This document shows positions 1 to 21,235 of a DNA stretch of 64,000 nt, one piece after another. Source of the DNA: Vulcanimicrobiota bacterium (GTDB lineage Bacteria > Vulcanimicrobiota > Vulcanimicrobiia > Vulcanimicrobiales > Vulcanimicrobiaceae). How positions within the stretch are numbered: position 1 is the first letter of the stretch; each line of letters opens with the position of its first letter. The notes beneath the pieces were generated by a model. That model searched no databases and had not been told where the DNA came from. It worked only from the letters and a program-made list of their open reading frames with translations. The stretch covers positions 1-64,000 of the forward strand of contig DAHUXH010000014.1 in NCBI GenBank assembly GCA_027307235.1, in the 5' to 3' direction. The position numbers and the translations under genes are program-made.

Positions 1-630
1 TGTCCCGCCTGCCGGGCTTACCACGATCTTGTCGCCGAACTGCGGGTCGATCCCGGTTCCTTTCAGCGATGCCCGATCGTTGGGCTTGTAGTAGCCGAAC
101 CGGTTGACGTACGAAGCCGTGCGAATCGCGGCCGGCGGGCTATGCAGGTCGGTGAGCTTGCCGCCCATCGCACTCCAACCACCGTGCGCATCCACACCGA
201 ATTCATACGTACCGCTCGGACCGAGCACGACCAGCATGTGATCGTACCCGGTGCGCAAGTCGACCGTGTACACGTAGGGATAGGTTGAGGCCCCGATCTT
301 CACCGCGCCGCTCACGATCGCACCGCCATACGCGTCCCACATCGCCCCGCCGCTCATCGTCTTGACTGCAGCGAGCGCACTTGCCGGATCCTTCAGTTGC
401 GCATCCGTCAACGGCGGCAGCGTCGGAGCCGCGGTGGGTGAGGAGCTGGGAGCAGGTTGCACCGGTGACGAGGCTTGCGCGGGTGGGGAGGCTTGTACCG
501 CCGGTGCAGCCGACTGTGTTGCGGTTGGCGTTGGGGAGGGAGTCGGAAGCGGTGCGGCAGCGCGTGCTGCACTGGCGCAGCACATTGCGGCAGCGCATGC
601 GAACACAATCGATTTCAAAGCGAAGGACAC
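1..630 (-). CDS. Secreted protein of unknown function, C-terminus cut by the left window edge
   Basis: An open frame runs from a GTG at 630 to the window edge without a stop, so the gene is partial at its 3' end. The start is preceded by AAGGAAAG about 10 nt upstream. Residues 1-24 form a signal peptide (basic VSFALK, hydrophobic core, ASARA-type cleavage site). About 50 residues rich in Pro, Ser, Thr and Ala follow as a linker, then a folded segment with motifs such as MSGGAMWDAYGG and PYVYTVDLRTGYDH. I do not recognise the family. The pattern of export signal, low-complexity linker and globular domain suggests an envelope or secreted protein. An alternative GTG start at 666 would add 12 residues. 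The segment looks like a real gene because the codon positions are free of stops for over 200 codons and the signal peptide is convincing. Confidence 0.65.
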   Translation of the reverse strand, partial: MSFALKSIVFACAAAMCCASAARAAAPLPTPSPTPTATQSAAPAVQASPPAQASSPVQPAPSSSPTAAPTLPPLTDAQLKDPASALAAVKTMSGGAMWDAYGGAIVSGAVKIGASTYPYVYTVDLRTGYDHMLVVLGPSGTYEFGVDAHGGWSAMGGKLTDLHSPPAAIRTASYVNRFGYYKPNDRASLKGTGIDPQFGDKIVVSPAGGT

Positions 631-1198: not shown

Positions 1199-1783
1199 CT
1201 ACGGTTGTGCTGCAAGCAGATTCTTCGCCCAGACATCGTAAATCTCAAGGAGAGCCGCTCCGGTTTCCGTGTGGTCGCCGAGCGAATAAGCGAAAGTAAC
1301 CATGACGCGCATAGGGTTGAGCTGAACTTTTCCGTGGCCTGCCAGAAGAGGCTGACCGTAATCTACAAACCTTAGACTTCTCGTCATGACTGTCCATTTC
1401 AGTCCAGTGATTTGCGTCCTTAGGACTTCCGCAAAATATATCCCAACATCAAACATGAGCGACACCGTTGAATCGACCAATTCGAATTCACGAACCTCAA
1501 CTGCATAGGGAACGCTCGCTTTCACTGCGTCAATTTCCGCTTGTGAACGCGGCCGGACTTGGATGTTTTGTTCCACCCATCTACCGAGTTCTATCAGCGA
1601 TGCTCGACGTAAGTCAGGCTCCCATCCCTCAAAGCCCGATGTAGAACGCACCGCACGCGCCAGTCGAGAGATTGCGGTCTCCGTTTGGGCGCAGTACCAC
1701 TTGAAATAGGTATTGATTTCCTGTCGTGACAAAGAGCGGAAGTCGGTGATGGGAAACGGCGTGATTATGACTTCATAATTCAT
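1199..1783 (-). CDS. Candidate immunity protein of the CdiA-type toxin
   Basis: 194 aa, no signal peptide or membrane segment, so probably cytoplasmic. It begins 25 nt after the stop codon of the giant exoprotein whose C-terminus is a nuclease-like toxin domain. This is exactly where CdiI/polymorphic-toxin immunity genes sit. The protein is mixed alpha/beta with many aromatic residues (TYFKWYCAQTE, WEPDLRR) and acidic stretches, which is compatible with binding a basic nuclease. I see no motif that names an immunity family. The role is inferred from context: the established rule is that each CdiA-CT toxin is followed by a cognate immunity gene. An unrelated downstream gene remains possible. 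Confidence 0.6.
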   Translation of the reverse strand: MNYEVIITPFPITDFRSLSRQEINTYFKWYCAQTETAISRLARAVRSTSGFEGWEPDLRRASLIELGRWVEQNIQVRPRSQAEIDAVKASVPYAVEVREFELVDSTVSLMFDVGIYFAEVLRTQITGLKWTVMTRSLRFVDYGQPLLAGHGKVQLNPMRVMVTFAYSLGDHTETGAALLEIYDVWAKNLLAAQP

Positions 1784-1808
1784 GTGAACAACGTCCCGTA
1801 CTCCTCAC

Positions 1809-4800
1809 TTATGGCGTTCGAATGATGACCTTAATGCCTGCATTCTCCAAGGCCTGCAAGAGTGGTGCAGATGGTCCGCCTTTGCCGGTAACTGGGCTGA
1901 CGAAGAAATTCCACACAACTTCTTTTACCGCTCGGTCCTTCATGAGTTTAACATCTTTCGCGATCTGCTTCGCAACGTCACTCGTAAGGCTTGTGTAGCC
2001 GACCTTTGATTCGTTGGCAACGTCGTCGACAAGCTGGTCTACAATTCGAGGCCCCAGGCTCGTGTCGAAACGGACCTGCGACTCGCCTCCAAGTGTTTTC
2101 AGGAAATCTTCGCCAACCTTTCCAGTCGATCCGATCGTCGTAAAGGCACTCTCGGCAGCGCCAGCAGCAACATCCTTGCCTGCTGCCGCTTGAATGGCAT
2201 CCAGTGCGTCGACGCCAGCCTCACCAACGGCACCCACGCCTCGCGCCTCGCCAACGCCCGGAATGGCAAGGGTCGCAACGGTCAGATCAAGTTGACCGAT
2301 TTGCTCACCCATTGCGCCAATGTTATCCGCGCCGCCGTCGACGATTGCTTTCATGTCCTTGTCGAAAGCAGCAAGCAGCGCTCCTTTCTGGTCCGCGATG
2401 AGCTTCGCACGCACGTTCGGGTCGGAGAGCAGCGCGGCGTCCGTCGATAGTTGTATCTCCGCCTCAATCTGAGCCGAAGTTCCATTCGCTCCGAGGGCCG
2501 CAAGGAACCCGATGCCTTTCAACGTGCCAACGACCGCGTTGCCAAACCCTTTCAGCTGTCCGGCATAAAACGCGCCATCTTGTTCGCTGTTGATTGCGGC
2601 GTATTTCAGCATCACTTGCAATTTGCAGGCTGTGGTCGCACACTTCTTCAGTTCATGAACCGCCGCCGTAACCTGATGCCATCCAAGCCAGTTGTTCTCA
2701 CTCGTGCTTTGCGCAGACGAGATGGTTGCGGCAAGGTTGCTCGTGCCGGCGGCTATGCCGATCGTTCCGGCTAGCGTGTCCGCGAGATTGGCCATCGCCT
2801 GTTTCTCGCTTTGCGTCATGTTCGGATCGTTGGGATTACCGAAGAGATTGGTTGCCGCACTTGCAACGCCCGCGCCAAGCGCCGATGAACTGCAGCTGCC
2901 GCCGCCGATCGTCGCCGTCGCGCATGCGCCCGCCGCGTGCATCAGGATACTCAGCGCTGAACCTTCGGGTACAGCACCCGTTGCCGCAAGGTTGCCGATT
3001 TGCGTGCTGACTTGCTCTTCTAAGAAGTTGCCGACACCGGCTTGAACCACTTGTCCGAGCGAACCGGTCGCGTTCCCGGTGAGCGCCCCGACCGCCGCAG
3101 TAAGCACCTGACGATCGAGGGAGCCGAAGCCCCATTGCTTTTGCAGCTTGCCGGCCTCTTCGGCATCGGCCCGACGCTGTTCTAGCGGAACATGATCGTC
3201 GTGAGCTGCCTTCATCAACGCGTCGATCTTCGCTGCTTGGCTCGCGAGGAAATCGCTCGCCTCGCTCCCGACCAGGCCGGCAAGCTGCATGTCTTCCTTG
3301 ACCTTGTTTAGATCGACTTGCGCAAGCGTGTTCGGCCCTTGGTTCGCGTCCCGGCTCAACCCCGCGAGGCTCTGCTGCTGCGCGTTTGGATCGGTGATCG
3401 CGATCGTCCCGTTACTGATCGCGCTGGACGTCGTCGAACTGCTAGCGCCGTGCGCATCCACCGCCGAGGGCGCAGAGGCGTTCCAGCCGTTGTACCCGGA
3501 TTGTTGCTGACCGGGCACATGCGAGTAGTTCATCCCGAAACTCGCGTTCTGACCGGCATACGACGACGAGTTCTGAATGTTGCTGTACGTCAGCGTGCCG
3601 GTGCTCAACGAGTTCAGCGAGGCGTTTGCCGTTGAACTGATGACCGCACCCACCAGGTTCGTGTTCCCGCCGACGTTGACGTTGAACCCGCCGCTGCCGG
3701 CAAACAAGCCCGCTTGCGTGACCACTGATTGCCAGTTGCTGTTGAGCGTATCGTTCGAGGAGTTGAACGATGCACCCAGGACGTTGCCCGTCATCGTCAC
3801 GCTCAAGCCCGCACTCGACGAGTTCGAATTGAACGTGTTGGTGTTCTGCAGGCTTTGTATGTCGAGATTGCCCGCGACCTTCACGTCGACGGTCGCTCCC
3901 TTGACCGCCGAACCCACGATGCTCGTGTTGCCGCCCGACTGCAACGACAGCGTGCCGGCTGCGTTGAGCGTGGAGCCCACCCATGTCGTGCTGCTCGCAT
4001 CCGTCGTCCCCTGCGACGTATTCACGTTCGCACTGAGCGTCGGCGCATTCCCAAACCCGAACTGCGACCCGACCGACGCACCAGAACTGCTGAAGCTCGA
4101 ATGCGAATCGGTCGTATCCTGCGCCGACAGTATGCTCAAGTTCTGCGCCGCCGTGATCGAGAGGTCGTTGCTCGCGCTCACGCTTGCGCCCACCAAAGTC
4201 ACGTCACCCGAGCGCGCGTCGATCGTGACGTTCTTGCCCGAAAGCGTGCTCCCGACCGCCGTCGAGGAGTCCGTCGTCGACGACGACTGCGAACTGCTCG
4301 TTCCCAGCGTGGCCGAGAACGACGAGCCGTGATCGATGCTCTTAAGGCTGCTGAGGTCACCCGGGATCTTCTGCACCTGCTGCAGCGCCTCGATGCCGAG
4401 CAACGCAGCCAAACGCGGGTCTTGCACCTGACCCGCGTGTTGCAGGTCTTGATAGGCCGTCTGACCGGCGCTCAACGCACTGTTGTTGAACCCGAATGAG
4501 AAGCCGCTGAACGACTGCGAACTGGTGCTCGTCGACTGATTGGTGTCGTTCGCGGCTGTGATCGTGACGCTCGCACCGCCGACGCTCAAGTCACCGGCAG
4601 CCTTGAGCGACGAGGCCGTGATCGTCGTCGCCCCGTTGGCGTTGATCGTCAGGTCCCCGTTCAGACTGCCGATCGTCGAACCGACTTGCTGCACCCCGCT
4701 GTTGGTCGTCGAGTGCGAACTCGATGCGCTTCCGAACGAGAACCCAAGCCCGCCGCTGCTGCCGCCGCCCAAGGTCATCAACCCGCTCTGCGAACTGGTT

Positions 4801-7800
4801 TGGCTAAAGCTGCTGCTAAACGTGTTCTGCGCCGGAGCGATCGACAGATTCCCCTGCGCGAGAAGACTCACCGCATTGGTCCCGACGATGCTCGAACCGG
4901 TCACCGACAGGTTGCCGCTCGACTGAACCACGACGGAATCGCCTGAAAGCACCGAACCGACCGCCGTCGTCGACGACATGCTCGCATCGGTCGTCTTGCT
5001 GCTCGAAGACAGCAACCCGCCGCTCGAGACGCTCGTATGATAGCTGGCCGACTGGCTATCCGTCGCCGTGCCGATGTTCACGGTCGCGCCGCTCACGGTG
5101 AGCGACTTGCTCGCGTTGAGATCGGCCGCGATGAGATTCACATTTCCCGCGCCGAGCACGGTCATGCTGCCGCCGCTCGAAATCGTGCTCGTTAGGTTTG
5201 TGACTTTGTCCTGGTTGTACCACCCGACCGCGTCGCGCGATTCGGCAACGGCCGTGTTGACGGTGAGATCTTTTCCGGCCGTCATCTTGAGATCGCCCGC
5301 CGAGGCGACGTTCGCGCCCGTGATCGTGAGATCGTTGCCCGCCTGAAGCGTCAACGTGCCGCCGCTCGAAATGCCGGCGGTCGCGTGAATCGTCGAGGTG
5401 CTCACGTTGCCGATCCCGGGATCGACCACCGTGATGTTCTTCAGATCGTGCGTCGCCTGAAGAACCACGTTCCCGCCTCCGGCGATCGTGCCGCTGGCGT
5501 TGATCAGGTCGTTGCTGGCCGCGAGTACCATGTCGCCGCCCGAAACGATACTTCCGCTGTTCGTGATGTTGGTCGCATCGATCGACACCTGATTGCCGCC
5601 GACGATCGTGCCGGAGTTCTGCAGATCGCCGGTCTTTAGGTTGATGTCGCGCGCGGAGATCAGCGCTCCGCCTTGCTGCAGATCGTTTTGATCGACCTTC
5701 GCCAAGTAGACTTTCGGAACGAGGACCTGCTGGCCGTCAACGTTCTGCCACACCAGCCACACCATGTCGCTGGTCAAGTGCGCCATCTGATCGGCGGTCA
5801 GGCCGATGCCCACTTCCAAGCCGAACTGCTTGGCGAACACGGCGCCATTGTCGAGCAGCGCTTGGTACTCGTTTTGATTCGATGCATAGCCCGGCAAGAA
5901 CTGACGCCCAGTCAGCTGCGTCACTTGCTGTTGCACTACTTGCTGTTCGTAGAATCCGTCGCCCAGGCGCTCACCGACAACGCTCGGATCGAGCTGCAAT
6001 TGCTGCAACAGATAATTGCTCGAGAGGAAGTTCCCGAGGTTAGCAAAGTCGGGATTGGTCTCGACTAAGTAGGCTTGGCCGGGTGCCTTGTTCACTGAAT
6101 ACAGGCCGTTGCTCGGCACCTGAATCGAGAGGTTGAGCGGCTGCGGCTGAACCGCGGCGCTCGACGCAACCTTGATCCCGGTCACGGCAACCGGCAGAAT
6201 GAGCGCCCCGACGAGAACACCCGCATGCCGGCCAGGGACGATAGTCGTGCGCGTGGTCAGCTCTGGGACGCCCGTAATCGGGGATGGCGTTGCGGCAGCC
6301 GCTACGCCGGACGTCGTGCCGGTCGCATTGCTCTGCGCGGCAACAGTCGTACCGATCAAGCGAACGCCGATGCCGGGCTTGACCGTGATCGGGGTCGCTC
6401 TCATGCCGTCATTCAGACGGGCGATAATCCCAGGGTCTGAAGGCGGCGGCGAAACCGACTGCGGGGCGCCGCCGGTGTTTACTGGTCCGGTGGGCGTGGG
6501 CCCGGCTCCGGTCGGAGCGGCGAACGGATTGAAGCTCGAGCCGTTGCTCGCGACAGAGTTCCCGCTTGCGTTTACGGTGAGATTGTCGATGCTGCCGACA
6601 TTTCCCAAAATGCCGCCGTTGACCATGATGATCGCGTCGACCGAGCCGATCTTGGTCGGATTGGGAATGACGTCGTTCTGCGGGAACGGCGGGCTCGACG
6701 TCGAGCACGACCCGAAGATGCCGAGAAAACCGCAACGCGTCGTTCCTTGGAAGTTCCAGACGCCGTTGGTGAACGTCTCGACTCGGTCGAGTTCAAGAGC
6801 GCGATTGGTGAGGGTGACATTGCTCTGCTGCGTCGTGCCGGAACCGTTGGATGCGCCGGTCACGACGCCACCCAGAAAGAGCGATCCGCCCGCCGAGATC
6901 AATGAGTAGTTATTTTCAATGTGGCCGCCGGCGCTTGCGTTGCCCTCGAGGAACATGTTCCCGCCGGACTCGAGTTGGGCTTGCGGCGATTCGGCGACCA
7001 CGACCGTCTGCGTGATCCTGTGATCGTACGTGAGCGAACCTTGGTTGTAACCGTTGGGCACGCCAATGCAGTTCCACGGCGCTGAACAATGCGCGCCGCT
7101 GCTGTCGTAGAATGCCTCGGTCTCCCCCGCTGTGAACGATTGCAGCACTTGCGTAGCGACCAGCGTCGTGCGTGCGTTAAAGATTCCGTCGGCTGAAATC
7201 GCGAGATCGTTTGACGCCTTGATCGTCGCCGACGCATTGTTGACGCTTTGTGCGTTGTCGATCAAGTTGCCGTTGGCATCGACCTTACCGTCTTTCGCAA
7301 TGGCGATGTTGCCGAGGCTGAAGATGTTCGCGCTATCCTGATTGGTCAGGCTGTTCACGTAGAGGTTCGCGGTTCCGGCAGCGGCGATCACTGCGGGTGC
7401 GCCGGCGTTCACCAGCGTTCCCGCGTTGAGCGTGAGGTTGCCGCCCATAATGGTTGCGGTATTGTAGAGGGCGGAGCCGTTGGTGGTGAGCGTCACGCCC
7501 TCCAACGTTCCCAAGTTGTAGATCGTGCCCGCGTCGATGACGGTGTTTCCGGAGCGGATCTTCGCACCGGCCATATTGTCGAGCGCTCCGGAGTTGATCG
7601 TCAGGCCGCCTAGTGCTTCGAGATCGGATTGGTTCTCGAACATGCCCTGGTTGCCAAGATTGAACGTCATCGTGCCATTGGCATGGAACTGGTTGCCCGA
7701 CAGATAGGTGAAGCTGCCCGGAAGATTGATCGTGAGGTCGGTTCTGGCGATGATCTTTCCGCCGGCCGTTGGCGCGGGATCGGGCGCGCCCGGCGGCGGC

Positions 7801-10800
7801 GTCGGCACAGAGCCGGTCACCATTCCGCTCGGCGGCGTGGGCGTCGGGTTCGGCGTGGACGGCGGAGGTGGAGGCAGTGTGCGCGGCGGGGGCGTCGGCG
7901 TAACGCCACCGCCGCCACAGGCGAAGGCGCAACGCGCAAATGGTATCGGCCCGCCGTGCGGAGTTCCGCCGCCACCGCCACCGCCACCGCAAGCCGGGCA
8001 CGGTGGCGTGAACGTGGGCCTCGGAGTCGGCGCCTGCGTCGGCACGGGAGCCGGCGGCGCAGGCGTCGGAGTCGCCGGGGTTCCGCCGGTTGCGAACGTG
8101 TTGGTCGTGATGATGATGCTGTTTTGCGACTCGATATCGCCCGCGCTATTCAGCAAGCTGCTCAGGTTCAGCGTCATGTTTCCGACTGCATCGAAAACAC
8201 CGTTGGTGTTGTCGAGCGTGGCTCCGCTCTCATTGAAATTGAGCGCGCCGCCTGCGAAGACGTTGCCGCCGTTGTTATTGAGCAACTGCGTGAGAAAGAA
8301 ACCGAGGTCTCCGCCCGTGACGTGACCCTTCGCGTTGGACAGCGTCGCGCCGGAGATGGAGGTTGCCCCATTTCCGCCGAGCGTGCCGCCGTCGTTGATG
8401 ATCGCCTGCGCTGCGATCGACGTCGCGCCCGTGCCGCTATTGCCGAGCAATCCGTTCTGCGTGTTGTCGAGCGTCCCGCCGGCCGTCACGTTGAGCGTGC
8501 CCTGGCTCTTGATGGAACCACCGGCATTGCCGAGCGCACCTCGCACCGCAAGATCCACGGCGGATCCGGCGCTGATCGTTCCTTTGGCATTGTTGAGCGC
8601 GCCGGTTGTGATCGCGATACCGCCGTTGCTCAGAATTTGACCGGTCGCACTGTTGTCGACGCTCTGCGCGGCGTTGATCGTGATCGTGCCGAGCGTGGCG
8701 GCGTTTTCGATGGTGCCGGGATTGAAGAGCGTCGGCGCGGTGAGCGTCAGCGCGCCATTCGCCCCGATCGTGCCCGCATTTGAAATACCTCCACCGGCTC
8801 CAATTGAGATATTTTGGCCGAACAGCTTGCCCGTGTTGCTAAACAAGCCACCGACGCCGAGTGCAACCGTTCCGTTTCCTTCAATGGTGCCATCGTTGGT
8901 GAAGGCGCCTCCGGCGTTGATCGACAGCGTGCCGCTTCCCGCATCGCGAATCGTGCCACCGGTGTTGATGAGCGAACCCGGCGCAAGCGTCAAGTCCGTC
9001 GCGTTCGTTTCGATGAGGCCGCCGGCATTATTCAGCGTGCCGCTGACCGCTAGTTGTTGCGCGCCGTTTCCGGTCTGGCGAATCGTGCCGGATGCGTTGT
9101 TGAGCGTGCCGGTTTGCAAGGCGAGCGCGCTCGAATCGATGGTGCCGCCGGTGCTATTGTCGATTGACGCCGCGTCAAACGCCAACCCGCCGATGGTCTG
9201 CAGCGTGCCGCCTTTGCTGTTGTCCAGAAGACCGGCGATGTGCGCGGTGCCGATATTCGCGGCAAAGATCGTGCCGCCGGCATTCGCTAGGCTCGCTGCG
9301 GTGATCGCGAACGAACCATTGGTCTCAAGCGTTCCGCCCGCATTCTGCAGCGCACCCGGGGTCGTGATCGTGAACGTGCCGCTGCCGGCAGCCTTGATCG
9401 TGCCGTTGTTGTTGATCAACGTCGCGGGCGTGAGCGTCAGGTCGGTCGCATTGGTGGCGATCGTGCCGTTGGTGTTGTCGAGCGTCCCGCTCACGGCGAG
9501 CGTCGTGATGCCGTTGCCAAGCTGCGTGATAGAGCTGCCGTTCGTGTTCGACAGCGCACCTGCGGTAATGCTCAGGCCCTGGCCGACGATCGTGCCTTGT
9601 CCCGCGGCCGTCCCGCCGTTGATGATGGTGGCAGCGTTCAGGGTCACATCATTGGCAGCCGCGAGGATTCCACCGGTGTTGTCGAGCGACGTCCCCGCCG
9701 CAACCGCCAGATTCTGGCCGGAGGTGATCTTGCCGCTGTTGCGCACCGTTCCCGCGACGAGCGACACGTCACCGTTCGCACCGATGGTGTTGCTGTTCGC
9801 GAACGACGTTTGCGCGCTGATCGATACGCCGCTGTTCCCAACCGACTGAATCGAGCCGCTGTTGCTCCCGCTTCCCAGATTGAAAGCGAGCGCTCCGGCC
9901 GTTTGGATCAATCCCGCGTTGCCGAGCGTGCCCGCAGTCAGACTTGCGGCGCCCATCGTCTGGATCGTTCCGGCGTTCTGCAGCGCGCCACCGACCTGCA
10001 ACGTGAGTGTACCCGTCCCGCCATGCCCAATCGTGCCGCCATTGGTGAGCGCGCCCGCGTTCATCGTCAGGTCGGTTCCGTTGCTCAAAATCTGTCCCGC
10101 GTTGTCGACGAGTCCGCTGAACGACAGTTGCGCCGCGCCGTTGCCGCCCTGCTCGATGATTCCGCCAACACCGTTGGAGAGCGTGCCGCCGCCAAGATTC
10201 AACAGCGCCGCGCCGATCGCACCGCCCGCGTTCTCGATCGAGAGACCGCGGATCGTGGCCGTGCCGCCGGATTGCAGCGAACCTCCGGCGTTATTCAAAT
10301 CCCCGCTCGCAGAAGCGTTGAGATTTCCGGTCGCGGTGATCTTGCCGCTATTTTGCAGGGAGCCCGCCGCGATCGTCACCGTGCCGTTGCCGCCGATCGC
10401 GCCGGTGTTGTTCAGCGCACCGGCGATCTGTAGCGACAATCCGCCGTTCCCGAGCGAGAGCAGCTGGCCGCCGGCATTCACAGCGCTTGCGGCCGACACC
10501 GACAGCGCACCATCCGCCTGGAACAGGCCGTTGGTGTTGTCGAAGACCTGCGCACTCACCGTACCGTCTCCATGCGCGAAGAGCGTCCCGCCCTGCGTGT
10601 TGACGATGTTCGCACCGGAGAGCGACAACGTGCCGTTCGTTTCGATCGAACCGCCGCTGTTCTGCACATCGCCGGAACTTGCGATCGTGAACGTGCCGCT
10701 CCCAGCATGCGCGATCGTACCACCGGTGTTGATCAACGCCGATGGCGTCAACGTGAAATCCGAGGAGGCCGTCGAGATCAGCCCGTTGGTGTTGTCGAGA

Positions 10801-13800
10801 ACGCCGCTGATCGCCAATTGCGTCGCGCCCGTGCCGCTCTGCACGATGCTTCCGTGCGCATTCGTCAACGCATTGGCTTGCAGATGAAGCAGCGCCCCCA
10901 TGACCGAGCCGTTCGAATTGTCGATCGACGACGCGGCAAGCGCGGTCGTGCCGGCCGCGGCGAGCGCGCCGGCGACATTATTCAGCGTACCGGCGACGCC
11001 GAGTTGAAGGTTTCCGGCGGACGTGATCTTACCGGAGTTTGCCAGCGTTCCCGCTGCGATGGCGACGTCACCGTTACCGGCAATCGTTCCGCTGTTGCTC
11101 ATGGCGCCGCTTACGCCGAGCGTCATGCCCGCGTTCGAGAGCGAGAATATCTGCCCACCATTGATCAAGGAGCTAGCGTTGAACGCTAACCCGCCGACGG
11201 TCTGCACCAGACCGCCTGTGTTGTCGAATGTTCCGGCGTCGGCAATCGTCCCTGACGCGCCCGCCGCGATCTGCCCACCGCTATTGTCAACGCTCGATGC
11301 CTGAAGGTTCAGCGCACCGCCGCTTGCGATGGTGCCCTTGGCATTCGTCAACGCACCGGTCGTCAGCGCGAAATTCAACCCATTGGTCGCGATCGTTCCA
11401 CCGGTGTTGTCGAGCATTCCGCGCAGCGCAATCTGCGTTGCGCCGTTTCCGCTCTGTGTTATCTGGCCGCCCGCGTTGCGCAACGTGCCGCCCTGCACGT
11501 TCAGCAATGCTGCGCCGATCGCACCACCCGTGTTATCGAGTGACGTGGCCGTCAACATTGCCGCACCGCCGGCTTGCAGGAGACCGCCTGCGTTCGTGAG
11601 ATCGCTTCCGCTTGCGACCTGCAAGTTGCCGACGGCCGTCACTTTCCCGCTGTTCTGAAGCGAACCCGCGGCAATCGACACGTTCCCATTACTGCCGATG
11701 GCACCGCTATTCGCAAGCGCGCCGTTGACCGCGAGCGTCATGCCGCCGCTTCCGAGCGCCATGAGGTTCCCGCCCAAGTTCTGAAGCGTTGCGGCAGTCA
11801 CCGCGAGCGAGCTTCCGGCTTGCATCGTGCCGCCGTTGTTGTTGAAGGCACCCGTTGCGACCGTGGCGGCCGTAGCAGCCTGGATCGTGCCGTTCCCATT
11901 TTCGATGCCGGCAGTACGTATGTTCAGTGCGCCGTTGCCGGCAATCAGGCCGCCGGCGTTCTGCAAGACCGCGTTTGCGGTGTCGATGGTGAGCGTGCCG
12001 GTGCCCGACAGCGCGATCGATCCGCCGGCATTGATCAACTGACCCGGCGCCAAGGCAAGGTCGAGCGCGTTCGAAGCGATTTGCCCCTTCGTATTATCGA
12101 GGGTGCCGCTGACCACGAGTTGGCCATCATTCGTGCCGCTCTGCACGATCACACCGCCGGTGTTGGTCAACGTGCCGGTTTGAACGTTGAGCAGACCACC
12201 GAATAGCGCGCCACCTGAATTGTCAATCGCCGATGCATCCAGTTCCAGCGTGCCACCGGCGCTGATCTTCCCGCTATTGCGCACCGTGTCGGCCGCGATG
12301 CTGACCGCACCATTTCCACCGATCACACCATCGTTGGCAAGCGCGCCGAGCACCGACAGCGTCATCCCGTCACCGGAGAGCGACACCACCTGCCCGCCGC
12401 TGTTGTTCAGTCCCACCGCATTGAATACCAGCCCCCCCACGGTCTGCACCGTGCCTTGGCTGTTGTCGAATGCACCCAACGATGCGATCGCGCCCGAACC
12501 TCCGGCCGCTATCGTTCCCTGCGAATTATCAACACCCGACGCGAGCAACGCGAGCGTGCCGTTCGTCGTGATTATTCCGCCGCTGTTCGCAAGCAATGAC
12601 ACGGGCGTCGCGATCGTCAGCGTTCCCGTGCCCGCGTGCGCGATCGTGCCGCCGATATTGATCAGTGTTGTCGGCGTAAGAGCGAGGTCGCTCGCATTGC
12701 TTTGCAACTTCCCATTGGTGTTGTCCAACGTCCCGCTTACCGCGATGCTGCCGACCCCGGTGCCCAGTTGCGTGATTTGCCCGGAAACGTTGCTCAGGTC
12801 GCCCGCTTGCAGATTCAGCAGACCGGCGCCAAGCACACCTTGCGTGTTGTCCAACGACGATGCCAGCACGTTCAGCGTGCCGGGTGCCGCTATCGTTCCG
12901 CTGTTTTGCACCACATTGCCGATGATGGATACGTCGCCGTTGCTACCGATGGTACCGCTATTCGAGAGAACGCCGGTAGCCAGTGACAACCCGTCGCTGC
13001 CCAGCGAGAGCAGTTGACCGCTATTCTGCATCGCTCCCGATGTCAACGAAAGCGCGCCCGCCGCCTGAACCACGCCCGCCGTATTATCGAACAGCCCGCC
13101 GACCGTGATCGTCGTCGCACCGGCCGTCGTCAACTGACCACCGGCGTTCAACATATTCGCACCGGTCGCCGTCAGACTGCCCGCGTTGGTCGTCGCGCCG
13201 CGAAGGTTTAGATCGCCACTGCCTGCGTTGAGCGTCGCCGATCCGCCGACGCCGGTGTGCGAGCCTGAAAGATCGATGCCGGAGCCGGAGAGCGAGAGTG
13301 AGCCTGCAGCGAAGTTCTGACCGTTCGCTGCGATCGCGCCCGGCGCAGCTACCGTCAAATCACCGCTGCCCGCAAATGTTCCGTCGGGATTGATGCCGGC
13401 CGCGAACGTTCCTGACGATGTTACCGACGAGGCGGTCACACCGAGATTCGAACCTGCGGCGATCGTACCGGAGTTGGCAAGCTGACCCTGTGCGTTCAGC
13501 GTCATCCCATCGCGTGCGTAGAGCGTGCCGCTCACCTGCGCGGCTCCGGCTGCGTTCAGCGTCGCGCTTCCAGCCGAGGTGATTGCGCCGCTCACCGTCA
13601 AATCGCCGTTGGCAGACAGCGTCAACGGCCCTGACTGTGTCGCGATCGTTCCCGCGCTATTGACGCCAACGCCCGCATCCGTAGCCAACAGGTAGATGCG
13701 GCCCGCATACATTCCGCCGAGATTCGAAACGTCGATCGCATACACGACCGGAGCCCCCGAGCCGGTTCCACCGATGTTCTGCGCGCCATGCGTCGCATAG

Positions 13801-14495
13801 TCGATCTGGTTGCTGCCGGCAATCGCGTTGAGCGTTTGCGCCCAGACCGGACCCGACACCGAGATCGACTTTCCAAGCAAATTGAGCTGGTCGACGTTCG
13901 TCCCGTTCAAACCGCTGCCCGTGATATTCAGCTGGCCTCCCGTGACCGAAAACCCGCTCAGCGAACCCCCGGCACCAAAGATCGGCGTACCGGTCGTCAA
14001 CGTCGCTTGCGAGGCATTGATGAACCCACACCCGTTGCACGTGATTCCAAACGGATTCGCGATCACGACGTCTGCCTTGCTGCCGGCGACCTCCATGTAT
14101 CCAAGCAGCGCGCTCGGATTCGCCACCGTCACCTGCGCCAAAATCACTTTGGCCGGCACCAAGCCCAAGAACAGATTGCCGGGAATATAGCCGGCCAATT
14201 GCGTTCCCGTGATTTGCGGACTGTTGTTGAAGATCAGGCCGCCCGGGCCGACGTTGAAGCTCGTGAATTGATTGTTCGACACACCTGCCGCCGACGGAGC
14301 CGTGATCTGAACGAGCGCCGTGCCGTTGGGAGCTTGCTGAACCACCGGCTGATTCTTCCCGGCATGTGGATCAGAGACAACACCACCGCTGGTATCACCG
14401 GCGAATGCCGCAAGCGGCTGCACCGCAAATGCAAACAGCAACACCGACGCTGCCGACTTCCTGAATCGCTCGATCGTACGTTTCCCGGTCTTCAT
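1809..14495 (-). CDS. Giant CdiA/FhaB-like two-partner secretion exoprotein with C-terminal nuclease-like toxin
   Basis: 4,228 aa. Residues 1-32 are an export signal. Residues ~35-320 form a TPS secretion domain with the family hallmarks ANPSALLG (about 125), ANPFGI (146-151) and CNGCGFIN. Residues ~320-2130 are filamentous-haemagglutinin repeats rich in N, G, T and short 'LDNTxG' units. A Pro/Gly/Cys block occupies about 2137-2244. Residues ~2810-2930 carry the conserved CdiA segment (VETNPDF, LGDGFYEQ, QLTGR, VWLVWQ). A second FHA repeat region follows to about 3700, then a pretoxin region. SENN at about 3932 takes the place of the usual VENN boundary. The last 100 residues look like a PD-(D/E)xK nuclease (Asp4153, Glu4162, Lys4164; then TSLT, WNFFVSP, GPS). 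The upstream gene encodes the matching TpsB transporter and the downstream gene is a candidate immunity gene. By analogy the protein is exported to the cell surface and delivers its C-terminus into neighbouring cells. Target specificity cannot be read from sequence. Confidence 0.93.
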   Translation of the reverse strand: MKTGKRTIERFRKSAASVLLFAFAVQPLAAFAGDTSGGVVSDPHAGKNQPVVQQAPNGTALVQITAPSAAGVSNNQFTSFNVGPGGLIFNNSPQITGTQLAGYIPGNLFLGLVPAKVILAQVTVANPSALLGYMEVAGSKADVVIANPFGITCNGCGFINASQATLTTGTPIFGAGGSLSGFSVTGGQLNITGSGLNGTNVDQLNLLGKSISVSGPVWAQTLNAIAGSNQIDYATHGAQNIGGTGSGAPVVYAIDVSNLGGMYAGRIYLLATDAGVGVNSAGTIATQSGPLTLSANGDLTVSGAITSAGSATLNAAGAAQVSGTLYARDGMTLNAQGQLANSGTIAAGSNLGVTASSVTSSGTFAAGINPDGTFAGSGDLTVAAPGAIAANGQNFAAGSLSLSGSGIDLSGSHTGVGGSATLNAGSGDLNLRGATTNAGSLTATGANMLNAGGQLTTAGATTITVGGLFDNTAGVVQAAGALSLTSGAMQNSGQLLSLGSDGLSLATGVLSNSGTIGSNGDVSIIGNVVQNSGTIAAPGTLNVLASSLDNTQGVLGAGLLNLQAGDLSNVSGQITQLGTGVGSIAVSGTLDNTNGKLQSNASDLALTPTTLINIGGTIAHAGTGTLTIATPVSLLANSGGIITTNGTLALLASGVDNSQGTIAAGGSGAIASLGAFDNSQGTVQTVGGLVFNAVGLNNSGGQVVSLSGDGMTLSVLGALANDGVIGGNGAVSIAADTVRNSGKISAGGTLELDASAIDNSGGALFGGLLNVQTGTLTNTGGVIVQSGTNDGQLVVSGTLDNTKGQIASNALDLALAPGQLINAGGSIALSGTGTLTIDTANAVLQNAGGLIAGNGALNIRTAGIENGNGTIQAATAATVATGAFNNNGGTMQAGSSLAVTAATLQNLGGNLMALGSGGMTLAVNGALANSGAIGSNGNVSIAAGSLQNSGKVTAVGNLQVASGSDLTNAGGLLQAGGAAMLTATSLDNTGGAIGAALLNVQGGTLRNAGGQITQSGNGATQIALRGMLDNTGGTIATNGLNFALTTGALTNAKGTIASGGALNLQASSVDNSGGQIAAGASGTIADAGTFDNTGGLVQTVGGLAFNASSLINGGQIFSLSNAGMTLGVSGAMSNSGTIAGNGDVAIAAGTLANSGKITSAGNLQLGVAGTLNNVAGALAAAGTTALAASSIDNSNGSVMGALLHLQANALTNAHGSIVQSGTGATQLAISGVLDNTNGLISTASSDFTLTPSALINTGGTIAHAGSGTFTIASSGDVQNSGGSIETNGTLSLSGANIVNTQGGTLFAHGDGTVSAQVFDNTNGLFQADGALSVSAASAVNAGGQLLSLGNGGLSLQIAGALNNTGAIGGNGTVTIAAGSLQNSGKITATGNLNASASGDLNNAGGSLQSGGTATIRGLSIENAGGAIGAALLNLGGGTLSNGVGGIIEQGGNGAAQLSFSGLVDNAGQILSNGTDLTMNAGALTNGGTIGHGGTGTLTLQVGGALQNAGTIQTMGAASLTAGTLGNAGLIQTAGALAFNLGSGSNSGSIQSVGNSGVSISAQTSFANSNTIGANGDVSLVAGTVRNSGKITSGQNLAVAAGTSLDNTGGILAAANDVTLNAATIINGGTAAGQGTIVGQGLSITAGALSNTNGSSITQLGNGITTLAVSGTLDNTNGTIATNATDLTLTPATLINNNGTIKAAGSGTFTITTPGALQNAGGTLETNGSFAITAASLANAGGTIFAANIGTAHIAGLLDNSKGGTLQTIGGLAFDAASIDNSTGGTIDSSALALQTGTLNNASGTIRQTGNGAQQLAVSGTLNNAGGLIETNATDLTLAPGSLINTGGTIRDAGSGTLSINAGGAFTNDGTIEGNGTVALGVGGLFSNTGKLFGQNISIGAGGGISNAGTIGANGALTLTAPTLFNPGTIENAATLGTITINAAQSVDNSATGQILSNGGIAITTGALNNAKGTISAGSAVDLAVRGALGNAGGSIKSQGTLNVTAGGTLDNTQNGLLGNSGTGATSIAAQAIINDGGTLGGNGATSISGATLSNAKGHVTGGDLGFFLTQLLNNNGGNVFAGGALNFNESGATLDNTNGVFDAVGNMTLNLSSLLNSAGDIESQNSIIITTNTFATGGTPATPTPAPPAPVPTQAPTPRPTFTPPCPACGGGGGGGGTPHGGPIPFARCAFACGGGGVTPTPPPRTLPPPPPSTPNPTPTPPSGMVTGSVPTPPPGAPDPAPTAGGKIIARTDLTINLPGSFTYLSGNQFHANGTMTFNLGNQGMFENQSDLEALGGLTINSGALDNMAGAKIRSGNTVIDAGTIYNLGTLEGVTLTTNGSALYNTATIMGGNLTLNAGTLVNAGAPAVIAAAGTANLYVNSLTNQDSANIFSLGNIAIAKDGKVDANGNLIDNAQSVNNASATIKASNDLAISADGIFNARTTLVATQVLQSFTAGETEAFYDSSGAHCSAPWNCIGVPNGYNQGSLTYDHRITQTVVVAESPQAQLESGGNMFLEGNASAGGHIENNYSLISAGGSLFLGGVVTGASNGSGTTQQSNVTLTNRALELDRVETFTNGVWNFQGTTRCGFLGIFGSCSTSSPPFPQNDVIPNPTKIGSVDAIIMVNGGILGNVGSIDNLTVNASGNSVASNGSSFNPFAAPTGAGPTPTGPVNTGGAPQSVSPPPSDPGIIARLNDGMRATPITVKPGIGVRLIGTTVAAQSNATGTTSGVAAAATPSPITGVPELTTRTTIVPGRHAGVLVGALILPVAVTGIKVASSAAVQPQPLNLSIQVPSNGLYSVNKAPGQAYLVETNPDFANLGNFLSSNYLLQQLQLDPSVVGERLGDGFYEQQVVQQQVTQLTGRQFLPGYASNQNEYQALLDNGAVFAKQFGLEVGIGLTADQMAHLTSDMVWLVWQNVDGQQVLVPKVYLAKVDQNDLQQGGALISARDINLKTGDLQNSGTIVGGNQVSIDATNITNSGSIVSGGDMVLAASNDLINASGTIAGGGNVVLQATHDLKNITVVDPGIGNVSTSTIHATAGISSGGTLTLQAGNDLTITGANVASAGDLKMTAGKDLTVNTAVAESRDAVGWYNQDKVTNLTSTISSGGSMTVLGAGNVNLIAADLNASKSLTVSGATVNIGTATDSQSASYHTSVSSGGLLSSSSKTTDASMSSTTAVGSVLSGDSVVVQSSGNLSVTGSSIVGTNAVSLLAQGNLSIAPAQNTFSSSFSQTSSQSGLMTLGGGSSGGLGFSFGSASSSHSTTNSGVQQVGSTIGSLNGDLTINANGATTITASSLKAAGDLSVGGASVTITAANDTNQSTSTSSQSFSGFSFGFNNSALSAGQTAYQDLQHAGQVQDPRLAALLGIEALQQVQKIPGDLSSLKSIDHGSSFSATLGTSSSQSSSTTDSSTAVGSTLSGKNVTIDARSGDVTLVGASVSASNDLSITAAQNLSILSAQDTTDSHSSFSSSGASVGSQFGFGNAPTLSANVNTSQGTTDASSTTWVGSTLNAAGTLSLQSGGNTSIVGSAVKGATVDVKVAGNLDIQSLQNTNTFNSNSSSAGLSVTMTGNVLGASFNSSNDTLNSNWQSVVTQAGLFAGSGGFNVNVGGNTNLVGAVISSTANASLNSLSTGTLTYSNIQNSSSYAGQNASFGMNYSHVPGQQQSGYNGWNASAPSAVDAHGASSSTTSSAISNGTIAITDPNAQQQSLAGLSRDANQGPNTLAQVDLNKVKEDMQLAGLVGSEASDFLASQAAKIDALMKAAHDDHVPLEQRRADAEEAGKLQKQWGFGSLDRQVLTAAVGALTGNATGSLGQVVQAGVGNFLEEQVSTQIGNLAATGAVPEGSALSILMHAAGACATATIGGGSCSSSALGAGVASAATNLFGNPNDPNMTQSEKQAMANLADTLAGTIGIAAGTSNLAATISSAQSTSENNWLGWHQVTAAVHELKKCATTACKLQVMLKYAAINSEQDGAFYAGQLKGFGNAVVGTLKGIGFLAALGANGTSAQIEAEIQLSTDAALLSDPNVRAKLIADQKGALLAAFDKDMKAIVDGGADNIGAMGEQIGQLDLTVATLAIPGVGEARGVGAVGEAGVDALDAIQAAAGKDVAAGAAESAFTTIGSTGKVGEDFLKTLGGESQVRFDTSLGPRIVDQLVDDVANESKVGYTSLTSDVAKQIAKDVKLMKDRAVKEVVWNFFVSPVTGKGGPSAPLLQALENAGIKVIIRTP
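7765..8085 (-). other. Proline/glycine/cysteine-rich block inside the giant exoprotein
   Basis: Residues about 2137-2244 of the exoprotein leave the FHA repeat pattern. They become alternating Thr-Pro and Ala-Pro runs with two poly-Gly stretches (eight and four Gly). Four cysteines lie close by in CPAC and CAFAC. The reading frame stays open and the FHA repeats resume on the GGK side. In characterised CdiA proteins a Tyr/Pro-rich periplasmic segment arrests export. Whether this block plays that part is not known. The clustered CxxC and CxxxC could bind metal or form disulfides. Confidence 0.75.
8105..13600 (-). repeat. Coding tandem repeats of the filamentous-haemagglutinin region
   Basis: The DNA here encodes many degenerate units of roughly 20 residues, seen as recurring 'LDNTxGxIxSNxxDL', 'NSGxIxxxGxL' and 'LQNAGG' phrases. 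Short near-identical stretches recur at the nucleotide level. One example is ccgttggtgttgtcgagc near 8,205 and 9,470, with a close variant near 10,785. These units build the elongated beta-helix of FHA-type exoproteins. The repetitiveness makes this segment prone to slippage and to short-read assembly error. Confidence 0.85.
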
Positions 14496-14530
14496 CGATC
14501 TTTTCGCGCTTTCTTCGTGATGTGGGTGCT

Positions 14531-16150
14531 TTATATCTGAACTTGAACGTCAACGCCGCCGGATGAATCGCCCGCCTGCGGACCCGGTGGCGCATGCAGC
14601 GGAACGCCGCTGAAAATATCGTAGGATATCCGCCCGCGATTGCCGCGCAGGCCAACCGCAAAGCCCGCAAGCGATGTGCCCGACAGGAACTGCGTATTCT
14701 GACCCCACACGGCACCGGTGTCCAAACCGAAATACACGGTCGTATTTTGATTGAGCGCCGACTCGATATCGTTGCGCCAAAAATACCCGCTCTCCGCGGC
14801 CAGCGAGGCAGACGGGCTGATACCGCGCACGGTGTACCGGTTGCCGATGGCAAACTGGTCATTGGGATACAACACGTCGCCCGTCATCTGACCGTGCAGG
14901 TGCGACTCCCAACGCAATCGTGTCCCACGCACCGGTAGTGACGACGAAATATCCGCTGTTTCGAGTGTATAAAAATTCGTCGGTGGATTGGCCAGGCTTT
15001 GAATGTCAGGCAGCGCGCCCAGAATCGGCAGCCCTAGCCGCAACCCGATCGACGTCTGAAGCGAACTGCGACCGTCGCCGGCGCTGCGCGACAATACCAC
15101 CTCGCCGTAGGTCTCGTCACGCTGCTGCACGCCGATTTCTGTATCGTCGAGAAAGCTGCGTCCCGTCGAGTTGACGAGATTGACCGTCAGGTCGGTTTTG
15201 ACTCGCTGCGTGCGATACAACATGCGCGTCGCTCCGAACGACGTTTGGTGCGTGACACCACTGAGGGTGTACGGCGAATTCAAACCCGAGATCGTCTGCG
15301 AGTAGTTGAAGCGGGTTGCACCGAATTGAAACGTCCAATACCCGTGTGGAATCGAGTAATACGCGCTGTCACCGAGCGTGTTTCCTCCGATCCCGCCTTG
15401 CACCGCGCTGTTCAGCGCGATGTTGAAGAGGTCGTTTGCATGAAACGGATTATCGAGCGCAGCGGTCAGCGACCCTTGAAGAGGACCGGTTTGGGCGCTT
15501 CCCGCGTCGTTGATGTCGGTCACAAAGCGCCACGGCTTGTTGTGCTTCACGTCCAACATGATGTTGGATTCGCCCGGGTGCGTATCGGGAGCGATCGCCA
15601 TCTGCACGTCTTGACTCGGAACGCGCTTCATCTGCTCCAAGCCTTGCTCGAGGTCGCGAATGTTCAGTAATTTTCCCGGACGTGTCGGATACGCGTCCTG
15701 CCACGTCGTTTGCGAATGAGGTCTTGCAAAGGCGATCGCGTGAATCACGCCGGGCGTGATTTCATAGTGCAGATCACCGGAAGCGAGGTTCTGCTGCGGA
15801 ACTCGCACGCGCGTGGTCACATAGCCGTGCGCGATCAAGTCGGCGGTCAACTCGGCACTGATGGCGTTGATCTCACTGACGCCGATGCACGTGCGGGCGT
15901 GACGATTCAGATCGCTCTGAAGAAACCCCAGTTCTTGCGGAATGCCGTCAGCGTGGAGGCGAGCGATCAGAAAGCACGGCGCTTGCGACGCAACGCGGGG
16001 AGCAGGCGTCGGCGCCACAGCGAGCGCAGCTGGTGGCGGGCTCGGCGAAGCGGCCGCTTCGTCAGCGGCACGCGCTCGAGCGCCCGTACTGCTAAGCGCA
16101 GCCAACGCCAATGCCATCACGGCTAGAGCTACGCGAATGATGCGCCCCAC
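14531..16150 (-). CDS. TpsB-type outer-membrane transporter (ShlB/FhaC/CdiB family)
   Basis: 539 aa from a GTG at 16,150 that follows AGGGGG with about 4 nt spacing. This start gives a clean signal peptide (GRIIRVALAVMALALAALSS, then ARA). A longer frame reaches a TTG at 16,213 but would bury the signal peptide. After a Pro-rich linker come POTRA-like segments (about residues 75-230; CFLIARLHADG, ITPGVI, DLEQGLEQMKRVPSQ) that bind the TPS domain of the substrate in the periplasm. The rest is an outer-membrane beta-barrel with the VRG motif of the family's conserved loop at about residue 438. It lies 35 nt upstream of the giant exoprotein gene on the same strand, the usual tpsBA order, and should export it. 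Confidence 0.92.
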   Translation of the reverse strand: MGRIIRVALAVMALALAALSSTGARARAADEAAASPSPPPAALAVAPTPAPRVASQAPCFLIARLHADGIPQELGFLQSDLNRHARTCIGVSEINAISAELTADLIAHGYVTTRVRVPQQNLASGDLHYEITPGVIHAIAFARPHSQTTWQDAYPTRPGKLLNIRDLEQGLEQMKRVPSQDVQMAIAPDTHPGESNIMLDVKHNKPWRFVTDINDAGSAQTGPLQGSLTAALDNPFHANDLFNIALNSAVQGGIGGNTLGDSAYYSIPHGYWTFQFGATRFNYSQTISGLNSPYTLSGVTHQTSFGATRMLYRTQRVKTDLTVNLVNSTGRSFLDDTEIGVQQRDETYGEVVLSRSAGDGRSSLQTSIGLRLGLPILGALPDIQSLANPPTNFYTLETADISSSLPVRGTRLRWESHLHGQMTGDVLYPNDQFAIGNRYTVRGISPSASLAAESGYFWRNDIESALNQNTTVYFGLDTGAVWGQNTQFLSGTSLAGFAVGLRGNRGRISYDIFSGVPLHAPPGPQAGDSSGGVDVQVQI

Positions 16151-16479
16151 ATGTCCCCCTCGGCTCACCCACAAGCGCACGGTTGGCGCTAACCGAGCAG
16201 CATAGCGGAGCAATGCTAACAGGGCCGGTGCCTAACCCACACCACCCTGGCGCGAGAACCCGCCGCCACCAAGGTTAGGGCGAAAGTACCATACAACTGC
16301 TCGCTCGTTCAATGGGGACCAGCCGCGACCGCCTCGCGGTTGCCCCCGGCAGCCTGATGACGCTACCTTATAAGCAACCGAAAACTTGGTCTCCTAACCA
16401 CGGCGGTTCCGACTGTAAAGGTTTCGTATGCTGCCGGCAAGAGACAAAATTCGAACGGACGGCGTTCTTTGGAGGGATG
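16151..16479. other. Divergent intergenic region between tpsB and a secreted-protein gene
   Basis: About 330 nt without a convincing gene. CCTAACCC (16,231-16,238) and its exact inverse GGTTAGGG (16,273-16,280) form an 8-bp inverted repeat. CCTAACC occurs again at 16,393-16,399. This could be an operator set but is unproven. A weak plus-strand promoter candidate is TTGCCC (16,340-16,345), 18 nt, TACCTT (16,364-16,369). No clear terminator or small RNA was seen. Confidence 0.4.
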
Positions 16480-17004: not shown

Positions 17005-17598
17005 ATGCGTTTTCCGTGGTTTGCTCTTCCGGTCGCGCTCTGCGCGGCGATCCTCGTCGCCGGCGGCAGTGCGTCGGCCACGCTCGCGCGCCCCGTTGCG
17101 CTCGACACGCCGATTCCCGGCCTGCCCGCCGGCACCGGCGGCGGCGCACCGGTTCCGTACGTCGTCAACGCCAAGACGCATAAGGACACGCGCGTCGGCA
17201 TCGACGGCGTTTGGGAAGTGGCGATCCAGCAGCCCGACAAGACCGTCTACACGCACTTCAAACTCAAGCAGCTTGCCAACGCGAGCACCGCGACGCTCAC
17301 CGGCGTCTACATGGACAACAACGGAAAGATCTTCCCGGCGAGCGGGAAGGTTGAGGGCAAGAACGTCACGCTCACCGTCACGCTCAAAGACGGCACGGCG
17401 CTCGTCTTCGACGGTACGCTCGACGGCACGACCGACATGATCGGCATGCTGACGATGGGCGACAATCGCATCGCCTTCACCGCCGGCTACCGGCCGAAAT
17501 ACAATCCGCTCGACGACATCTCGCCCGGCCTCGGCGGCCTGGGCGGCGGCGGATTAGGCGCTCCCGGCGGCGGCGCCGGTGGCTACCCCCCGAAGTGA
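17005..17598 (+). CDS. Secreted glycine-rich-tailed protein of unknown function
   Basis: 197 aa. AGGTAGG lies just upstream of the ATG. A signal peptide (residues 1-26) precedes a segment resembling a small all-beta domain: GVWEVAIQQPDKTVYTHFKL, then NNGKIFPASGKVEGKNVTL. This is followed by a Gly/Pro tail with many GG pairs. The pattern 'TLTGVY...GKVEGKNVTLTV...GTLDG' is typical of exported beta-barrel proteins that report on substrate residue changes in many bacteria, but no named family is certain. It follows the previous secreted-protein gene at once and faces leuD tail to tail with 4 nt between stops. Confidence 0.72.
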   Translation: MRFPWFALPVALCAAILVAGGSASATLARPVALDTPIPGLPAGTGGGAPVPYVVNAKTHKDTRVGIDGVWEVAIQQPDKTVYTHFKLKQLANASTATLTGVYMDNNGKIFPASGKVEGKNVTLTVTLKDGTALVFDGTLDGTTDMIGMLTMGDNRIAFTAGYRPKYNPLDDISPGLGGLGGGGLGAPGGGAGGYPPK

Positions 17599-20762: not shown

Positions 20763-21235
20763 TCCTGCGCACGGTGGCCGAGCGTTTCGCGCTCCTGAAT
20801 CGCAGCAAGACCGTCGCGATGGTCGGCGCGTCGAACAACCCGATGCGCCCGAGCTACACCGTCTTCTCCTATCTTCGCACGCAGGGCCGCTTCACGGTGG
20901 CACCGATCAATCCGACCATTGCGCAGATCGACGGCGTGAAAGCCTATCCGTCGCTCGCGGCCTACGCGGCCGAGCGCGGCGCACCCGACATTGTCGACGT
21001 CTTTCGCAAACCGAGCGAAGTGCTTGAACTCACCAAAGAAGCAATCGCGGCCGGCGCCAAGGCGATCTGGTTTCAGTACGGCGTCATCAACGACGAAGCG
21101 ATTGCGCTGGCCGATGCGGCCGGACTTGCGGTGGTCGTCGATCGCTGCATCAAAGTGGAGAGCGCGCGGTTGGACGGCGGGCTCGCGGTCGGCGGCATGA
21201 ACAGCGGGCTGATCACCAGCCGCCGCCATGTCTGA
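20759..21235 (+). CDS. CoA-binding domain protein (YccU-like)
   Basis: 158 aa, a single Rossmann-type CoA_binding domain related to the N-terminal part of succinyl-CoA synthetase alpha. The opening MVGASNNPMRPSY supplies the nucleotide-binding loop. Later DVFRKPSEV and WFQYGVINDEA match the family's small stand-alone members. No catalytic function is established for this group; binding of CoA or an acyl-CoA is the usual inference. The ATG overlaps the metY stop (ATGA) and the 3' end overlaps the next gene by 8 nt, so its product is probably made together with those of the LuxE/LuxC-like genes, both of which handle activated acyl groups. Confidence 0.85.
   Translation: MILRTVAERFALLNRSKTVAMVGASNNPMRPSYTVFSYLRTQGRFTVAPINPTIAQIDGVKAYPSLAAYAAERGAPDIVDVFRKPSEVLELTKEAIAAGAKAIWFQYGVINDEAIALADAAGLAVVVDRCIKVESARLDGGLAVGGMNSGLITSRRHV

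What the first reader, a model, noticed from the sequence alone, without database searches (positions are those of the whole stretch)
1199..16150. Complete CDI-type locus in what looks like a non-proteobacterial diderm
TpsB, a 4,228-aa TpsA with TPS domain, CdiA-specific core segment, pretoxin and nuclease-like C-terminus, and a candidate immunity gene are all present in order. CDI is well known in proteobacteria; neighbouring core genes here (short tsf, archaeal-type proS, Amj) suggest a different phylum.
Basis: partly seen in the sequence, partly recalled or inferred. Interest (0 to 1): 0.6.

Follow-up and report, generated by a model that had tools for sequence, protein, structure and literature searches.

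The report
Contact-toxin locus in a Vulcanimicrobiota bacterium
This stretch encodes a complete, recognisable contact-dependent growth inhibition system (exporter, giant toxin-tipped filament, matching immunity protein) in a bacterium of the little-known phylum Vulcanimicrobiota (Eremiobacterota), very probably acquired sideways from other outer-membrane bacteria; it is a known kind of weapon in a phylum where I found no earlier report of it.

Summary
On the minus strand, cdiB (16213-14531), a 4,228-aa cdiA (14495-1809) and cdiI (1783-1199) are intact and in order. CdiA has a TPS domain, FHA-1 repeats, the core before FHA-2, Fil_haemagg_2 repeats, a pretoxin segment ending in SENN, and a C-terminus whose last ~106 aa carry an E/D/ExK/Q signature and model as a PD-(D/E)XK nuclease. 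The toxin and P0003 families are adjacent in all nine other toxin loci found, including two with a small secreted toxin instead of CdiA, so P0003 is very probably the cognate immunity protein. Neither matches Pfam.

The host is not proteobacterial. Its phylum has 149 held genomes; one in its own family (3,508,363 bp, one contig, ~68.5% GC, pufL/pufM) matches Vulcanimicrobium alpinum, giving Vulcanimicrobiota (Eremiobacterota). The CDI core occurs in 1 of 149 genomes. The locus sits between gene blocks adjacent in relatives, and its nearest kin are Beta/Gammaproteobacteria and Negativicutes: a horizontally acquired island, with a compositionally younger toxin-immunity cassette. CDI-type loci were already known in Negativicutes and Fusobacteria, so this extends a known kind to another phylum. 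No activity was tested.

The parts
14531..16213 (-). cdiB (TpsB): outer-membrane exporter with two POTRA domains and ShlB barrel; 560 aa from first TTG, in-frame GTG starts at 16168 and 16150 more plausible
   Evidence: Pfam ShlB 1e-76, POTRA_3 6.7e-20, POTRA_2 6.4e-12; nearest CdiBs in Lucifera butyrica and Burkholderiaceae
1809..14495 (-). cdiA (TpsA), 4,228 aa
13596..14381 (-). TPS secretion domain (aa 39-300)
   Evidence: PF05860 9.3e-49; mostly about 190-280 bits by phmmer to proteobacterial/Negativicutes TPS, no match to own-phylum TPS loci
8106..13595 (-). FHA-1 beta-helical repeats (about aa 300-2130)
   Evidence: TIGR01731, 30 stretches; aligned in 59-74 relatives
7746..8108 (-). Pro/Gly-rich low-complexity stretch (aa 2130-2250)
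   Evidence: sequence
6096..7745 (-). Region where a receptor-binding domain would lie (aa 2250-2800); contains the least conserved part of the stalk
   Evidence: number of aligned relatives falls from 61 to 38 and 9 at aa 2500-2700; role inferred from position only
5499..6098 (-). CdiA core before FHA-2 (aa 2800-2999); position of the secretion-arrest domain of CdiA
   Evidence: 42-55% identity to CdiA-type proteins among the best hits; position as described in PMC11630599
3396..5498 (-). FHA-2 (Fil_haemagg_2) region (aa 3000-3700)
   Evidence: PF13332 1.5e-40, 4 stretches
2691..3395 (-). Pretoxin domain (aa 3701-3935) ending in SENN (aa 3932-3935; VENN position)
   Evidence: PT-VENN sub-threshold 15.2 bits, DUF637 11.2 bits; Herbaspirillum alignment E 1e-16
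2130..2690 (-). N-terminal part of CdiA-CT (aa 3936-4122); position of a cytoplasm-entry domain
   Evidence: position only; no relatives found among loci held
1812..2129 (-). Toxin domain (aa 4123-4228), predicted PD-(D/E)XK nuclease
   Evidence: invariant E7, D31, E40xK42, Q55; AF2 pLDDT 80, pTM 0.77; Foldseek EndoMS, SfsA, BamHI, Mus81
1199..1783 (-). cdiI: immunity protein P0003, 194 aa
   Evidence: homologue directly downstream of every homologous toxin found
17005..17598 (+). Right flank: native family gene (P0008) next to the leuD/leuC block
   Evidence: present in 92 of 99 genomes of the family; syntenic
1..630 (-). Left flank: lineage gene (P0006) cut by the contig end; paralogues at the start of contig C16 of the same genome

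Best explanation
A horizontally acquired, chromosomal CDI (cdiB-cdiA-cdiI) locus in a Vulcanimicrobiota bacterium. Proposed working: CdiB exports CdiA through the outer membrane; FHA-1 forms a surface stalk carrying a receptor-binding region; export pauses at the core/secretion-arrest segment; on contact with a target, FHA-2 carries the C-terminus into the target periplasm; cleavage after SENN frees a 293-aa CdiA-CT whose N-terminal part enters the cytoplasm and whose last ~106 aa cut nucleic acid as a PD-(D/E)XK metal-dependent nuclease; CdiI (P0003) neutralises it in siblings. Shown here by sequence: gene order, domains, toxin-immunity linkage, host phylum, insertion site. Inferred: every step of delivery, nuclease activity, neutralisation.
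For: Domains and order. Core matches CdiA-type proteins. Pretoxin/ENN. Toxin signature and fold. Toxin and immunity families adjacent in nine of nine other loci: Rhizobium beringeri, R. tumorigenes, Burkholderia multivorans, B. cenocepacia, three further genomes of the Burkholderia locus's family, two IMG/VR contigs. Host. Island: CDI core in 1 of 149 genomes; flanks adjacent in relatives (in G092 the next conserved gene starts ~70 nt beyond the P0007 homologue), while in this genome that block starts contig C16. Composition: GC3 of CdiA body 73-83% against about 78-86% in neighbouring genes, falling to 61, 57 and 53% in entry region, toxin and cdiI.
Against: No activity tested. No known receptor-binding or entry domain recognised. 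PT-VENN only sub-threshold and the motif is SENN, not VENN. The best fold match is modest (E 2.9e-3) and no PDB sequence relative was found. CdiB sits on a long branch (1.15-1.31); with distant own-phylum TpsBs included, an AU test does not reject grouping it with them (p 0.63), so the donor is not resolved by the tree. The C14-C16 junction is inferred from synteny, not assembled.
Confidence: 0.85

Rival explanations
1. A TPS adhesin/filamentous haemagglutinin without toxin delivery, whose C-terminus and downstream gene are incidental.
For: Very long repeat stalk; no activity shown; TPS proteins without the CdiA core occur in 14 other genomes of the phylum.
Against: The C-terminal domain and the next gene form a pair that recurs together in nine other loci on different carriers; nuclease fold; FHA-2, core and pretoxin present.
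Confidence: 0.06
2. A decayed or silent CDI locus kept mainly for immunity against neighbours.
For: An orphan P0003 homologue exists in a related genome (G050, L032) with no TPS gene, showing that immunity alone can be kept in this family.
Against: All three genes are intact, including a 12.7-kb frame; catalytic residues are conserved.
Confidence: 0.06
3. Contamination or chimeric assembly: a proteobacterial CDI locus joined to a Vulcanimicrobiota contig.
For: Locus lies near a contig end; own phylum lacks relatives.
Against: Same contig as native syntenic genes; the gene left of cdiI has paralogues on contig C16, next to the block expected by synteny; CdiA body GC3 close to that of the genome; at most about 55% identity to any proteobacterial core found; genome contamination listed as 0.01.
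Confidence: 0.03

Closest known systems
CDI systems (cdiBAI type) of Proteobacteria, with CDI-type loci of Negativicutes such as Lucifera butyrica
   Same: Gene order B-A-I, TPS, FHA-1, core, FHA-2, pretoxin with ENN, CT toxin, adjacent immunity
   Different: Host phylum; 4,228-aa CdiA with Pro/Gly-rich interruption; SENN; toxin-immunity family without Pfam entry
bcpAIOB systems of Burkholderia
   Same: TPS-delivered CT toxins; the same toxin-immunity cassette occurs in Burkholderia-type TpsA proteins (L036, L122)
   Different: Gene order here is B-A-I and the motif is ENN at the VENN position, not the NExLNN-type motif seen in L121/L122
Tox-REase polymorphic toxin clades (Tox-REase-1, -6, -7; Zhang et al. 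2012, PMC3482391)
   Same: Residue pattern GxxxE, IxD, ExK, Q listed for Tox-REase-7; restriction-endonuclease fold
   Different: No match to the Tox-REase-7 model PF15649 or to any Pfam model; P0003 matches no immunity family in Pfam

Membership tests
CDI (cdiBAI) | CdiB/TpsB Omp85-type exporter next to cdiA | tested here: met
CDI (cdiBAI) | CdiA with TPS domain and FHA repeats | tested here: met
CDI (cdiBAI) | CdiA core/secretion-arrest region between stalk and FHA-2 | tested here: met
   core matches; arrest function itself not testable
CDI (cdiBAI) | Recognisable receptor-binding domain | tested here: inconclusive
   aa 2500-2700 poorly conserved in relatives; not compared with named RBD classes
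CDI (cdiBAI) | Pretoxin domain with VENN-like motif | tested here: inconclusive
   sub-threshold PT-VENN 15.2 of 20.3 bits, motif SENN; relative aligned at E 1e-16
CDI (cdiBAI) | Variable C-terminal toxin followed by a cognate immunity gene | tested here: met
   linkage in nine of nine other loci; function not tested
CDI (cdiBAI) | Contact-dependent growth inhibition of unprotected neighbours | not testable with these tools
   needs an experiment
PD-(D/E)XK nuclease toxins | E, D, ExK, Q active-site residues on an alpha/beta core | tested here: met
   invariant in six sequences; AF2 model; Foldseek top hits EndoMS, SfsA, BamHI, Mus81
Tox-REase-7 (PF15649) | Match to the family model | tested here: not met
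   no match at E <= 1 in the genome
Vulcanimicrobiota (host phylum) | Shares GTDB family with Vulcanimicrobium alpinum | tested here: met

The most novel reading that the evidence does not exclude
A functional CDI system in Vulcanimicrobiota, a phylum from which none seems to be reported, armed with an uncatalogued PD-(D/E)XK toxin and matching immunity family that moves between CDI carriers of diderm bacteria and small secreted toxins of probable Gram-positive bacteria.
Probability: 0.6. Interest if true: 0.5.

Novelty: new member of a known kind. Interest (0 to 1): 0.42.

Why it matters
It adds another outer-membrane lineage to the range of contact-dependent toxin delivery, in a Bacillati phylum of oligotrophic soils with a cultivated relative. 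If it works, the CDI machinery and its receptors function in an envelope outside the proteobacterial line. The toxin-immunity pair is a clean uncatalogued family ready for annotation and biochemistry.

Tried and rejected
16S identification failed: no SSU rRNA in this genome. The named genome-contig scan left out the window's own genome, so no name came from it. PF15649 did not match. Sequence search of PDB gave nothing convincing for toxin or immunity. The immunity model is poor (pLDDT 56) and its fold search uninformative. The viral-contig scan with the immunity alignment found nothing by itself. I first read the CdiB tree as excluding vertical descent, but the AU test did not reject grouping with own-phylum TpsBs; the transfer claim therefore rests on patchy distribution, synteny and similarity rather than on the tree.

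Full report
WHAT IS THERE. The minus strand holds cdiB (16213-14531), cdiA (14495-1809) and cdiI (1783-1199), separated by 35 and 25 nt. CdiB has POTRA_2, POTRA_3 and ShlB domains. CdiA has a signal peptide, the TPS domain at aa 39-300, about 30 FHA-type repeat stretches, a Pro/Gly-rich interruption at aa 2130-2250, a highly conserved core at aa 2800-2999, Fil_haemagg_2 repeats, and a pretoxin segment. The pretoxin domain is below Pfam's cut-off (15.2 of 20.3 bits) but its match ends close to SENN, and a Herbaspirillum TpsA aligns over the same segment to TENN at E 1e-16. The core lies where recent work places the CdiA secretion-arrest domain, between the receptor-binding region and FHA-2 (PMC11630599).

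TOXIN AND IMMUNITY. The last ~106 aa are 57-63% identical to C-termini of TPS proteins on Rhizobium beringeri and Burkholderia replicons. A homologue of P0003 (30-38% identity) lies immediately downstream in each. A viral-contig scan found two more copies of the toxin domain at the end of a 247-aa secreted protein, each again followed by a P0003 homologue; their carriers look like Gram-positive bacteria, an inference from the sequence alone. Three more copies came from 300 genomes drawn from the family of the Burkholderia locus L116. In all, nine of nine other toxin loci have the immunity homologue next door (in L035 and L123 the frames are partial or split). This is the strongest evidence that P0003 is cognate immunity. 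Six toxin sequences share G3, E7, R28, D31, E40xK42, Q55 and KD58-59. The AlphaFold2 model (pLDDT 80) has an alpha-beta-beta-alpha-beta core, and the top Foldseek matches are dominated by PD-(D/E)XK nucleases: EndoMS (E 2.9e-3, probability 1.00), SfsA, Mus81, BamHI; a CdiA-CT structure (4g6u) appears lower. No Pfam family matches toxin or immunity, NCBIfam gives none above its cut-offs for them, and Tox-REase-7, whose published signature the toxin resembles, does not match either (PMC3482391).

HOST. The genome is 2.41 Mb in 20 contigs, 96.6% complete. Its phylum has 149 held genomes, which excludes Pseudomonadota. Its rpsB is 64-68% identical to Bacillus and Listeria but 49% to an alphaproteobacterium. 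A genome of the same family, G118, is 3,508,363 bp in one contig, 68.5% GC over 200 kb sampled, and carries pufL- and pufM-type genes. Vulcanimicrobium alpinum is described as a complete 3.50-Mb, 68.4% GC aerobic anoxygenic phototroph with an LPS-covered outer membrane (PMC9758169). I therefore place the host in the family of Vulcanimicrobium, phylum Vulcanimicrobiota (Eremiobacterota).

ORIGIN. TPS domains occur in 15 of 149 genomes of the phylum, but the CdiA core and the toxin occur only in this one. CdiB scores 18-48 bits against own-phylum TpsBs and up to 370 against Lucifera butyrica and Proteobacteria. A careful tree without the distant rows puts CdiB in a group with Lucifera, Rhodanobacteraceae and Burkholderiaceae (support 96/87). 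With the distant own-phylum rows included, an AU test does not reject grouping with them (p 0.63), so the donor and the root remain open. The right flank (P0007, P0008, leuD, leuC, Cys/Met enzyme, CoA-binding, LuxE, LuxC, aminotransferase) is largely syntenic throughout the relatives examined. In relatives a second conserved block lies on the other side of P0007, about 70 nt away in G092; in this genome that block is at the start of contig C16, next to paralogues of the gene that ends contig C14. The CDI genes therefore sit as an insert between two ancestral blocks. GC3 of the CdiA body (73-83%) is close to that of the genome, whereas it drops to 61% in the entry region, 57% in the toxin and 53% in cdiI: the cassette looks younger than the carrier, as expected of CT-cdiI exchange.

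COMPARISON. Proteins of this kind were reported in Proteobacteria, Fusobacteria and Negativicutes (PMC8510554), and T5SS toxin neighbourhoods in proteobacteria, bacteroidetes, fusobacteria and negativicutes (PMC3482391). My own scan finds close cores in Lucifera, Propionispora and Megamonas, all Negativicutes (class of the first two from general knowledge), and in Leptotrichia plasmids. I found no paper on CDI in Eremiobacterota/Vulcanimicrobiota in the library searched, which does not hold most subscription journals. The finding is a new member of a known kind in a new phylum, with an uncatalogued toxin-immunity family as its most useful detail.

Noticed in passing
L032:1489-2229 (genome G050, same family): Orphan homologue of the immunity protein (36% identity) beside a HigBA-like pair, in a genome with no TPS gene and no copy of the toxin; may protect against the toxin of relatives.
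   Followed up: partly
window 20711-24791: CoA-binding, LuxE-like, LuxC-like and class III aminotransferase genes in a row, conserved across the family; a possible long-chain aldehyde/amine pathway.
   Followed up: no
L139 (G000 contig C16, 1-6000) and window 1-630: The two contig ends carry paralogous P0006-like genes; the two contigs are probably adjacent and the assembly broke in this repeat.
   Followed up: partly
genomes G134-G139 (family f14 of the phylum): Large genomes (7.7-8.4 Mb) with 4-11 TPS-domain genes each, none with the CdiA core: an unexplored set of TPS proteins.
   Followed up: no
L033 7283-13720 (Rhizobium beringeri plasmid): Tandem toxin-immunity cassettes behind a FHA-type gene, including a colicin E5-related ribonuclease with its immunity gene.
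   Followed up: no
L131, L135, L140: The site next to P0007 carries another shared two-gene insert in some relatives, suggesting an insertion hotspot.
   Followed up: no
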